44,053 nucleotides of DNA, taken from Thermoplasmata archaeon. GTDB lineage: Archaea; Thermoplasmatota; Thermoplasmata; Thermoplasmatales; Thermoplasmataceae. The notes below the pieces were generated by a model. That model worked only from the letters and a program-made list of their open reading frames with translations, had not been told where the DNA came from and did not search any database. Below are positions 15,639 to 19,371 of the stretch, one piece after another. The position numbers were made by a program, and so were the translations under genes. The stretch is from NCBI GenBank assembly GCA_021846395.1, contig JAJZXB010000012.1, positions 1 to 44,053 of the forward strand, given 5' to 3'. Every line of letters starts with the position of its first letter. Positions within the stretch are counted from its first letter, which is position 1.

Positions 15639-15857
15639 ATGCCTACAACTATACAAATCAGTGAAAAGCTTCAGAAGGAGTTGACAAGGAGAAAGCTCTA
15701 TGACAAGGAAACCTATGAAGAGATAATCTGGGATCTTATGGAAGATTCTCTCGAGTTGAGTGAGGAAACAAAGAAGGAATTGGCTCAGGCCCGCCAGGAG
15801 ATAAAGGAAGGTAAATACCATACCTTGGAAGAGATCAAGAAGGAATTGGGACTTTGA
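15639..15857 (+). CDS. relB: RelB-type antitoxin
   Basis: A 72-residue protein. The N-terminus MPTTIQISEKLQKELTRRK resembles the DNA-binding strand-helix of ribbon-helix-helix or related archaeal antitoxins, followed by YEEIIWDLMEDSLELSE. The C-terminus is a charged helix ending in TLEEIKKELGL, the part that normally wraps around the RelE toxin. ATG at 15639 is preferred over an in-frame TTG at 15633. It overlaps the toxin by four bases. It should neutralise RelE and repress its own promoter. A tail fragment of a related antitoxin is found at about 20.5 kb. Confidence 0.85.
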   Translation: MPTTIQISEKLQKELTRRKLYDKETYEEIIWDLMEDSLELSEETKKELAQARQEIKEGKYHTLEEIKKELGL

Positions 15858-16108
15858 CTTACCAAGTTTTGTTTTCTGATCTAGCGTTGAAACAGTTCAG
15901 AAAACTTGAAAGAATATTTCAAGACCGTATAATTTCTACCATAGAGAGAATCAGAATCCGACCAGATGCCCATGTTAAGAAATTGGTTGGGGATGAGGGT
16001 TACAGGATTAGGGTTGGAGACTACAGACTAATTCTGGATCTAGACCGGGAAAAACTTATAATTTTAGTGTTGAAAATTGCACACCGGAAAAATGTGTACG
16101 ACAGATAA
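15854..16108 (+). CDS. relE: RelE-type mRNA interferase toxin
   Basis: An 84-residue RelE/ParE-fold protein: MTYQVLFSDLALKQFRKLE, two helices, then KKLVGDEGYRIRVGDYRLILD and the final IAHRKNVYDR. The conserved Arg residues of the central sheet and the late His-Arg...Tyr are present, so it looks intact. In the family it cuts mRNA at the ribosome. The start is a TTG inside a TTGA overlap with the antitoxin stop, with no better ATG downstream; this would keep toxin translation low and tied to the antitoxin. Confidence 0.9.
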   Translation: MTYQVLFSDLALKQFRKLERIFQDRIISTIERIRIRPDAHVKKLVGDEGYRIRVGDYRLILDLDREKLIILVLKIAHRKNVYDR

Positions 16109-16208: not shown

Positions 16209-16438
16209 TCAAGTTCTAAGAAGATTTATTTTTTTGGTGAATTCTTCAGCAATCAGATTTTTCTGTTCATCCCCTAAATGAAAAACAGTCTTGATTATTG
16301 CCTCATTCGTAAATTGGTAGTGATTCCAGCAATGATCACATTACCAAGCCCTTCAAACAGTACAAGTGCTGGCCTAATTTTTGAACCATCAGAATTGGCA
16401 AAACTCACCCTTGTTGTCACCACCCCCTCGATCTAGGC
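16209..16438 (-). pseudogene. Decayed MazF/PemK-like toxin gene
   Basis: Downstream of and overlapping the antitoxin at 16433-16657. One frame gives VVTTRVSFANSDGSKIRPAL and then VLFEGLGNVIIAGITTNLRM, matching the N-terminal half of MazF-type toxins (the SDGSKxRPALVL strand and the following VIIAxITTN strand). A second frame gives NEAIIKTVFHLGDEQKNLIA and then EEFTKKINLL, the usual C-terminal end. The two are joined with a frameshift, and about 40-50 residues of the middle are missing. It cannot encode a functional toxin. Confidence 0.7.
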
Positions 16439-16657
16439 ATGTTCCCAACCTGAGTAATCACCATCTTTCCATAGCTCCCTCATCTTGGTTTCCTGAGATT
16501 TCTGGACAAACCCATTGAATTCTCTGGTTTCCTCCTCATTCTGTATAAGATTGTGTATAACTTCATTGTAAGTTTCACGAGGATACCGCTTAAATCTTTT
16601 CAGTGCTTCGGCAACTGATTTATCCAGCCGTATAGTTGTTACTTCAGACTTAACCAT
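16433..16657 (-). CDS. Ribbon-helix-helix antitoxin (toxin partner decayed)
   Basis: A 74-residue protein: MVKSEVTTIRLDKSVAEALK is a ribbon-helix-helix strand and first helix, YNEVIHNLIQNEE the second helix, and the tail ends WKDGDYSGWEHA, a typical flexible toxin-binding end. ATG at 16657 is chosen over an in-frame TTG nine bases upstream. The neighbouring toxin is a MazF-like pseudogene, so the antitoxin is an orphan. It may still act as a DNA-binding repressor. Confidence 0.8.
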   Translation of the reverse strand: MVKSEVTTIRLDKSVAEALKRFKRYPRETYNEVIHNLIQNEEETREFNGFVQKSQETKMRELWKDGDYSGWEHA

Positions 16658-16760
16658 TATTGACAATCTATAGTGGATATATAATCATTTATGTGATAAA
16701 TGTAGAATGCCAGTATTTCGTTGATTCGGGTTATTTTTCATAGAGAAGGTTTTTATTGAA

Positions 16761-17206: not shown

Positions 17207-18109
17207 ATGAACAGACACATATTAAACTCTCTCAGGGAGAGGCTTTTGGATAGAGGTTCTATACGCAACTTACCTGAAAAGGCACTTCAGGAATCATTTA
17301 TACTTAATACTTGGGGAACCAATGCAATAGAGGGAAATTCACTCACTCTGGATGAAGTAACAAAGGTAATTGAAAGTGGAATAACTGTGCCTAACCGCAC
17401 TGTAAGGGATCTAATGGAAACAATTCAACATAATGCCGCTTTGGCTGAAGTGGTAAGCGGAAAAATATGTGATGTGAACATGAAAAGTGCATTGGATTTG
17501 CATAATATAATATTTCATGGGATTCTTTTGGATGCTGGGCAATGGAGAATGGTAAACGTCAGAATATCTGGCTCAAAGTATTCGCCTCCCAGAGTCGAAA
17601 AACTCACCCCTCTCCTAAGAGGATGGGAACAACATTACGTGGAAATGGAAATGAAGCGCGAGGATATTTTCTCTCAAGCTGCTGAAATGCACTTTGGTTT
17701 TGAATCCATCCACCCCTTCTCAGATGGAAATGGAAGAGTCGGCAGATTACTGCTGAATATACATTTCCTCAACCACAACTGGCCACTCATTAATATCCTT
17801 CCTCCGGACAGGAATTCCTACCTGGATGCTCTGGAGGCTGCCCATTATAATGAACCGACAAAATTAACTGACTTTCTGAAAACTAACATGGCAAGATCCC
17901 TTATTTTTATGCTTGACATTGTAGGTTCTGAAGATGATAGGTTATTAACCATAAACGAAGTAAAAAAAGTCTCCGGAACGTATTACTCATCAAAATATCT
18001 GGCACTCAGGATCAATCAAGGAGAGCTTCCGGGAATCAGATTAAACGGTAGATGGAAGACAAGTTCAGCAGCCATAAACCTTTATCAAGAAATAAAGGGC
18101 AGAGAATGA
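17207..18109 (+). CDS. Fic family protein with N-terminal inhibitory motif and C-terminal HTH
   Basis: A 300-residue Fic-domain protein. The catalytic loop HPFSDGNGRVGR is at about residues 169-180, with the His and the anion-binding GNGR intact. An N-terminal TNAIEGN segment at about residues 39-45 matches the (S/T)xxxE(G/N) inhibitory helix of class II Fic enzymes, in which Glu blocks ATP. The C-terminus (LTINEVKKVSG...SKYLALRINQ) resembles an excisionase-type DNA-binding helix-turn-helix. The usual reaction is AMP transfer to a target protein hydroxyl; the target is unknown. It sits among toxin-antitoxin remnants, with no separate antitoxin, as expected for a self-inhibited form. Confidence 0.9.
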   Translation: MNRHILNSLRERLLDRGSIRNLPEKALQESFILNTWGTNAIEGNSLTLDEVTKVIESGITVPNRTVRDLMETIQHNAALAEVVSGKICDVNMKSALDLHNIIFHGILLDAGQWRMVNVRISGSKYSPPRVEKLTPLLRGWEQHYVEMEMKREDIFSQAAEMHFGFESIHPFSDGNGRVGRLLLNIHFLNHNWPLINILPPDRNSYLDALEAAHYNEPTKLTDFLKTNMARSLIFMLDIVGSEDDRLLTINEVKKVSGTYYSSKYLALRINQGELPGIRLNGRWKTSSAAINLYQEIKGRE

Positions 18110-18180
18110 TTTTTGTTCATAAATTATTTCATTCACACATGGGCATTTCCAGAACTGAATTGTCACACCAAAATCAAAGA

Positions 18181-18792
18181 TCAACTCATTTCGTCAATAT
18201 AATGTAATAGGGCTCTCTGATATTCCGGCAAAAGTCCTTGATTGCCTGAAATGATAAAAATGAGGGCAGTCTTAAGAGCCTTCTTAATTTCTCCTGACCT
18301 GAACAGAGCAATGCACAGAAATGCAAGAGCAGCAGGGTCCACTGTTTCTTTCTGAACCCTATTTAGGATAGCTATGGCCTTTTCATGTTCACCAGTAACA
18401 CTGAGTGAACTACCCAACTGAATTTCCGCCTGAGTTTTCATTTTTCCTGAAAGCCCTAATTTTATAGCCTTTAGATATAGAGGAATTGCCTCTGCCTCCT
18501 TTCCAAGAAAATCCAAAGTGTTTGCATATTGGAACAGGTATACAGCACTTCCAATTGTATTCTTAGAAGTATCAGAGATGGTGTCTGATCTCGTTCCGCT
18601 CAGATCCTTTGATTCGTTTATGTTCTTTATAATAGAGTCAGCATCATTGTCTGAAAATGTTCCTCTAATATCAAGCAGGGCCGCCCTGCCGATGAGCCTA
18701 TTTATTACGTCGGTGAAGCTTTCGTTATTTCCCTTAAATTTTTTCAATTTGGAATATGCCTCATCCGAAATAGATATATTCTTACTTCCCAT
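18181..18792 (-). CDS. VapB-type antitoxin domain fused to a TPR domain
   Basis: A 203-residue chimera. Residues 1 to about 70 (MGSKNISISDEAYSKLKKFK, ESFTDVINRLI, LLDIRGTFSDNDADSI) follow the whole length of the archaeal VapB-type antitoxins formerly called DUF217. Residues from about 77 to 203 form at least three TPR-like helix pairs: AVYLFQYANTLDFLGKEAEA, AEIQLGSSLSVTGEHEKAI, ALAFLCIALFRSGEIKKAL. No VapC toxin is adjacent. ATG at 18792 is chosen; a GTG 45 nt upstream is in frame. The TPR part resembles small bacterial TPR proteins. The function of the fusion is unknown: DNA binding by the first part with protein recognition by the second is a reasonable guess. Confidence 0.8.
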   Translation of the reverse strand: MGSKNISISDEAYSKLKKFKGNNESFTDVINRLIGRAALLDIRGTFSDNDADSIIKNINESKDLSGTRSDTISDTSKNTIGSAVYLFQYANTLDFLGKEAEAIPLYLKAIKLGLSGKMKTQAEIQLGSSLSVTGEHEKAIAILNRVQKETVDPAALAFLCIALFRSGEIKKALKTALIFIISGNQGLLPEYQRALLHYIDEMS

Positions 18793-18922
18793 GTAATCAC
18801 ATATACGTGTATCATTTAAATTTTGCTTCAACTCCACCTGAACTAAAAGTTATAGTTAAACAAACGTGGCTTGATCTAAGAATAGGTTCCAGGAAATGTA
18901 TTGATAGATCATAATTTGCTCT

Positions 18923-19054: not shown

Positions 19055-19270
19055 ATGGTTAAAACCACAATCAACCTTGATGATGAAATCCATTCTGAAA
19101 TGTATGGCAGCATCAGGAATATGTCAAAAATCATTAAGCAGCGGTTTAGGAACAGGAAATCTGACGCAAGGAAAGGTGAAAAGCGAATTGTGTTCAGTGG
19201 TAGGGAAGACCTTGCAACGCTGGATGCTGACAAGGAGATAAGGAAAGGATGGAAGAGAGGCAGTAAATAA
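19055..19270 (+). CDS. vapB: VapB-type antitoxin (toxin partner truncated)
   Basis: A 71-residue protein with a ribbon-helix-helix-like start MVKTTINLDDEIHSEMYGS, a basic middle (IIKQRFRNRKSDARKGEKR) and a charged C-terminal end EIRKGWKRGSK that would meet the toxin. A GTTTATACGG element about 25 nt before the ATG at 19055 supports this start over an upstream in-frame extension. A PIN-toxin fragment follows immediately in the overlapping frame, so this is the antitoxin of a broken vapBC pair. Confidence 0.75.
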   Translation: MVKTTINLDDEIHSEMYGSIRNMSKIIKQRFRNRKSDARKGEKRIVFSGREDLATLDADKEIRKGWKRGSK

Positions 19271-19371
19271 CAATACCGAGAGACACAAACGTTCTGGTTT
19301 ATGATACTCTAGAGAACCCCTCACACCATGTTCCTGCAGGTAATATTATCGACGCGTCAGAGAACCTCTGA
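19267..19371 (+). pseudogene. Truncated VapC (PIN-domain) toxin fragment
   Basis: The frame overlapping the vapB stop reads ITIPRDTNVLVYDTLENPSH and ends at 19371 after 34 residues. DTNVLVY with the first catalytic Asp is the N-terminal strand of PIN ribonucleases; the remaining 90 or so residues with the other acidic residues are missing. The first codon is ATA where a start codon would be expected. Confidence 0.75.

What the first reader, a model, noticed from the sequence alone, without database searches (positions are those of the whole stretch)
18181..18792. A VapB-type antitoxin fused to a TPR domain, without a VapC
The first 70 residues cover a complete archaeal VapB (former DUF217) antitoxin, including its usual LLDIRGTFSDNDAD region. 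Where a vapC gene would follow, the frame continues into about 125 residues of TPR-like helix pairs. I know of no standard system with this architecture. The TPR could replace the toxin as partner, turning the antitoxin into a DNA-binding adaptor. Alternatively it could be a recent chance fusion in a decaying zone.
Basis: partly seen in the sequence, partly recalled or inferred. Interest (0 to 1): 0.75.

Follow-up and report, generated by a model that had tools for sequence, protein, structure and literature searches.

The report
Deletion-born VapB–TPR fusion gene
A small archaeal gene joins the DNA-binding half of a toxin's antidote to a repeat-type protein-binding domain; relatives carry the two pieces as separate genes, so this looks like a one-off accidental fusion in a region of decaying toxin–antitoxin genes rather than a new kind of system.

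Summary
On the minus strand, 18792–18181 encodes one 203-residue chain: an almost complete VapB antitoxin (PF02697, E 1.5e-16) followed by a complete TPR_5 domain (PF12688, E 7e-19), with no vapC. The architecture is not conserved. In 77 genomes of the family, TPR_5 is a separate ~156-aa gene, usually converging on a Fic gene exactly as in the window. The nearest VapBs are separate genes overlapping an intact PIN-domain vapC. DNA homology to vapB ends, and homology to the TPR gene begins, within about 20 bp (18587–18569). The fusion therefore cost VapB its last few codons, all of vapC, and the first ~30 codons of the TPR gene. The vapB operator, a near-perfect palindrome wherever vapC is intact, is recognisable here (14/18) but eroded, as in other loci with lost or broken vapC. 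The TPR half is well conserved (dN/dS about 0.18 against a relative) and models confidently. Best reading: a deletion fusion in a decaying toxin–antitoxin island; a TPR_5 protein expressed from a vapB promoter with a leftover RHH domain, no longer an antitoxin. One oddity: two related genomes independently have vapB followed, across a single stop codon, by the TPR gene in vapC's place.

The parts
18181..18792 (-). Fused vapB-TPR_5 gene, 203 codons plus TAA
18571..18792 (-). VapB half: homologous to residues 1-74 of the 79-residue G033 VapB (68.9% identical); RHH core residues 1-33 are 31/33 identical
18569..18587 (-). Fusion junction: nucleotide homology to vapB ends at 18588 and homology to the separate TPR gene begins at 18568
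18190..18540 (-). TPR_5 domain (PF12688, residues 85-201); lacks the ~30-residue N-terminal segment of the separate TPR_5 proteins
18795..18812 (-). Eroded vapB operator ATACACGTATATGTGATT, 14/18 to the consensus palindrome ACACACATATATGTGTGT
18814..18820 (-). TATA-like TTTAAAT about 25 bp before the ATG, as expected for a leaderless archaeal transcript (inference)
   Evidence: sequence as printed
17207..18109 (+). Fic-domain gene converging on the fused gene; the same convergent pair occurs with the separate TPR_5 gene in relatives
19055..19368 (+). Remnant of a second, unrelated vapBC: shortened vapB (19055-19270) and a vapC cut off after ~34 residues (19267-19368)

Best explanation
The gene arose by a deletion that joined a vapB of a vapBC pair to a downstream TPR_5 gene which converges on a Fic gene. 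The deletion removed the last few codons and stop of vapB, the whole vapC and about 30 codons of the TPR gene, and left the frame open. The product is a TPR_5 protein whose own N-terminal segment is replaced by a VapB ribbon-helix-helix domain and which is transcribed from the old vapB promoter. It is no longer an antitoxin because it has no cognate toxin. It may still bind its own eroded operator weakly; any remaining cellular role is that of the TPR_5 domain as a protein-binding module. Shown: the two origins, the junction, the missing vapC, the conserved synteny, the eroded operator. Inferred: deletion as the mechanism, expression, weak autoregulation, TPR function.
For: In the family's 77 genomes the two halves match separate genes everywhere except here. 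The TPR half continues into the convergent Fic gene just as in G033 (same length as CP009479.1): window 18568-18001 aligns to L041 6975-7557 at 75%, while window 18810-18588 aligns to the distant vapB of the same genome, including 18 bp before the ATG. The nearest VapBs (G033, G040, G038) overlap a PIN vapC by 1-4 bp. Bacterial TPR_5 relatives align from TPR residue 4-8 on, so the separate form with its N-terminus is ancestral. In G038 a vapBC of this family sits next to Fic in the TPR's place, so this vapBC does reach the locus. vapC in this family is often broken or lost (14 of 29 loci), and operator match falls with it: 16-18/18 with intact vapC against 11-17 without, Mann-Whitney p 1e-5, ignoring relatedness. 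The window operator (14/18) is above chance: 1 of 2000 shuffles reached it.
Against: The unfused ancestor (Fic, TPR, vapC, vapB in this order) was not found in any genome, so the deletion itself is inferred. The TPR half shows no sign of decay and the RHH core differs at only 2 of 33 residues from G033, which would also fit a chimera kept by selection. Vertical descent and recombination between TA islands cannot be told apart. A local assembly error was not tested against reads.
Confidence: 0.8

Rival explanations
1. Functional RHH-TPR adaptor or sensor: the VapB domain binds the operator as a dimer and the TPR domain binds a protein or peptide that relieves or directs repression, much as HTH-TPR regulators of the RRNPP group work.
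For: RHH core intact (31/33 to G033), operator still recognisable (14/18), TPR domain complete and under constraint (dN/dS about 0.18 to G033). G019 and G020 independently have vapB followed by TAA-ATG and the TPR gene where vapC would start; the tree puts their VapB with G038, not with the window.
Against: One genome only; two other genomes of the same genus lack it. The operator is eroded here and more so in G019/G020 (11/18). Linker residues 64-76 are modelled with pLDDT below 50.
Confidence: 0.12
2. Pure relic: the same deletion fusion, but untranscribed or useless, open only because too little time has passed. This is a sub-case of the best explanation (same origin, no remaining TPR role), so the two confidences overlap.
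For: Neighbouring second vapBC is truncated, operator eroded, VapB end branch long (0.48 against 0.02-0.05 for G033/G040).
Against: No stop or frameshift in 203 codons; the TPR half deviates at only 4 of 76 conserved sites, no more than intact relatives.
Confidence: 0.3
3. Assembly artefact joining two loci.
For: Single occurrence; genome in 25 contigs.
Against: The junction lies inside a 44-kb contig, is in frame, and the TPR side keeps the Fic synteny seen in other genomes.
Confidence: 0.04

Closest known systems
Archaeal VapBC toxin-antitoxin pairs (PF02697 VapB + PIN VapC)
   Same: RHH-type VapB half 68.9% identical to G033 VapB; recognisable operator 3-20 bp before the ATG
   Different: vapC and the end of vapB gone; fused to TPR_5; operator eroded
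Separate TPR_5 proteins (PF12688; solved member 3K9I, BH0479 of Bacillus halodurans)
   Same: Complete TPR_5 domain, 68-78% identical to family members in related archaea; convergent with Fic as in most of them
   Different: Native ~30-residue N-terminal segment replaced by VapB
vapB-TPR gene pair in G019/G020
   Same: VapB directly upstream of TPR_5 in the same frame, without vapC
   Different: Two full-length genes separated by one TAA; a different VapB lineage; no homologous Fic in those genomes
RRNPP regulators (PlcR, Rgg and others): DNA-binding domain plus TPR
   Same: General plan of a DNA-binding domain followed by TPRs
   Different: HTH not RHH, more TPRs, cognate propeptide gene (PMC10075063 for the two-gene plan); no homology claimed

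Membership tests
VapBC toxin-antitoxin system | VapB antitoxin domain (PF02697) | tested here: met
   61.4 bits against cut-off 27.9
VapBC toxin-antitoxin system | Adjacent PIN-domain VapC | tested here: not met
   No vapC downstream; no cognate type elsewhere in the genome
VapBC toxin-antitoxin system | Intact toxin-binding C-terminal tail of VapB | tested here: inconclusive
   Homology runs to residue 74 of 79, but conserved R62 is K and the next residue, K in G033 and most relatives' RK pair, is D here; binding not testable
VapBC toxin-antitoxin system | Palindromic operator before vapB | tested here: inconclusive
   14/18 against 16-18/18 in intact loci
TPR_5 family (PF12688) | Full TPR_5 domain | tested here: met
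   68.7 bits, profile 3-118/119; helical model pLDDT mostly 89-98
TPR_5 family (PF12688) | Native N-terminal segment of the archaeal separate form | tested here: not met
   First ~30 codons absent
RRNPP-type HTH-TPR regulators | HTH DNA-binding domain with several TPRs | tested here: not met
   N-terminal half is VapB/RHH; about three TPRs
RRNPP-type HTH-TPR regulators | Adjacent signalling propeptide gene | not tested
   No search for short secreted peptides was made

The most novel reading that the evidence does not exclude
VapB's autoregulated RHH module is being recruited, more than once, to control a TPR_5 protein in place of VapC: fused in the window, and as a directly abutting gene in G019/G020. 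The fused chain would be an RHH-TPR regulator in which a TPR ligand, not a toxin, sets repression.
Probability: 0.1. Interest if true: 0.6.

Novelty: new variant of a known kind. Interest (0 to 1): 0.27.

Why it matters
It shows how toxin-antitoxin islands generate chimeric genes when the toxin is lost: the antitoxin's promoter and DNA-binding domain can pass to an unrelated neighbour. If the recurrent vapB-TPR arrangement proved functional, it would be an example of a TA autoregulation module reused without its toxin. As it stands it is mainly a caution against reading single fused frames as systems.

Tried and rejected
Conserved fused architecture: searched 77 family genomes and 400 of the class, GTDB contigs and viral contigs; no second fusion. 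The '249-aa open frame' listed for G019/G020 looked like a second fusion but holds one TAA between the genes. Common origin of the window fusion and the G019 pair: disfavoured by the VapB tree (G019/G020 with G038 at 99/98), although placement of the window itself is weakly supported. Cognate VapC elsewhere in the genome: not found. Known defence system: PADLOC has no hit for the fused protein or the TPR, only Fic-type and candidate (PDC) models for the Fic. Alignments A1 and A2 mis-registered the two halves and were not used; A3 was bridged with G019/G020 read through the stop only to anchor the alignment, and a few C-terminal VapB residues are still misplaced in it. Foldseek gave only generic TPR matches, none at E <= 0.001. 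Literature searches found no paper describing a VapB-TPR fusion (open-access library only).

Full report
OBSERVATION. The frame is on the minus strand: ATG at 18792, TAA ending at 18181, 203 residues. Pfam finds VAPB_antitox PF02697 at residues 4-62 (E 1.5e-16) and TPR_5 PF12688 at residues 85-201 (E 7e-19, nearly the whole profile), both far above their cut-offs. AlphaFold on a 24-row alignment gives seven helices from residue 75 with pLDDT mostly 89-98, a low-confidence stretch at 64-76, and a low-confidence VapB half, which is expected for a domain that folds as a dimer (the dimer remark is general knowledge of RHH proteins).

THE HALVES IN RELATIVES. In 77 genomes of the family, matches are to one half or the other, in separate genes. 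TPR_5 is patchy: 16 of 400 genomes of the class, 15 of them in this family. The separate TPR_5 protein is about 156 residues, with an N-terminal segment of the type MxxLNxIIEEAWKxxDxPExxLxxFQEVFEDYxEN that the window chain lacks. Bacterial relatives on plasmids align from residue 4-8, so that segment is old. The nearest VapBs (G033, G040 and G038) are 78-79 residues long and overlap a PIN-domain VapC by 1-4 bases.

SYNTENY AND JUNCTION. The separate TPR gene converges on a Fic gene, some 50-100 bp away, in G003 (TPR partly replaced), G030, G031, G032, G033, G034, G044, G052 and G053 (at a contig end), and as remnants in G057 and G069. The window has the same pair: Fic 17207-18109 (+) against the fused gene (-). 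Nucleotide alignment runs from window 18568 through the Fic end against G033; from 18810 to 18588 it runs against a vapB that lies 300 kb away in G033. The junction is thus within about 20 bp. By protein, VapB residues 1-74 of 79 are present and TPR homology begins near residue 27-31. In G038 a vapBC of the same family converges on Fic in the place of the TPR gene, and vapB copies lie 3-16 kb from the TPR gene in G044, G031, G003 and G008, so an ancestor with vapBC directly upstream of the TPR gene is plausible, though it was not found.

DECAY OR FUNCTION. vapB loci of this family with intact vapC have a near-perfect or perfect palindrome ACACACATATATGTGTGT about 20 bp before the ATG: 16-18 of 18 in 15 loci. 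In 14 loci with lost, cut or broken vapC the match is 11-17 (Mann-Whitney p 1.1e-5, relatedness ignored). The window has 14/18, which 1 of 2000 shuffles reached. So the vapB promoter was carried along and its operator has begun to erode. The RHH core is 31/33 identical to G033; the rest of VapB is 20/43, but that ratio is usual in the family. Conserved R62 is K here. The TPR half deviates at 4 of 76 conserved sites, about the same as intact relatives, and dN/dS to G033 is 0.125/0.698, about 0.18. Most of this divergence may predate the fusion, so it does not prove present selection on the chimera. Own-genome searches show no VapC of the cognate type.

A SECOND, INDEPENDENT JUXTAPOSITION. Their VapB groups with G038 (support 99/98), the window's with G033/G040 (weaker), so the two arrangements probably arose separately. 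Their operator is the most degraded (11/18). Recurrence may reflect only that these genes share islands; it is also the one observation that keeps a functional reading alive.

VERDICT. A real chimera, best explained as a deletion fusion in a decaying toxin-antitoxin island: a TPR_5 protein with a leftover VapB head, probably expressed from the old vapB promoter. It is not a VapBC antitoxin by the tests made (vapC absent), and not a conserved new architecture.

Noticed in passing
window 17207-18792; L041 6891-8402; L045 6312-7768; L046 6346-7794; L048 648-2096: A Fic gene and a TPR_5 gene form a conserved convergent pair in about ten genomes of the family (plus degenerate copies in G057 and G069). 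The Fic has HPFSDGNGRVGR and an N-terminal TNAIEGN resembling the class II inhibitory motif (recalled, not tested). Whether the two proteins interact is unknown.
   Followed up: partly
L014 1495-2199, L015 1495-2199: vapB and the TPR_5 gene abut in frame with a single TAA-ATG between them, the TPR gene standing where vapC would start; apparently independent of the window fusion.
   Followed up: yes
upstream of vapB in L027, L028, L030-L033, L058, L045, L099: Perfect or near-perfect 16-22 bp palindrome ACACACATATATGTGTGT about 20 bp before vapB, apparently the operator of this VapBC family; it degrades where vapC is lost.
   Followed up: yes
window 15642-16105 (+): ParD-like/ParE pair; the ParE passes Pfam's cut-off. 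A ParDE pair also stands directly before the TPR gene in G033 (L041 6262-6737).
   Followed up: partly
window 16433-16666 (-): Orphan VapB/DUF7557-like gene without an obvious toxin; a homologue lies at L058 8533-8754 (66% identical).
   Followed up: no
L047 1611-1682, L053 559-630, L055 6308-6381: tRNA-Ala genes directly upstream of TPR_5 genes; in L006 and L018 the upstream DNA holds a tRNA-like 3' end, as at an integration site.
   Followed up: no
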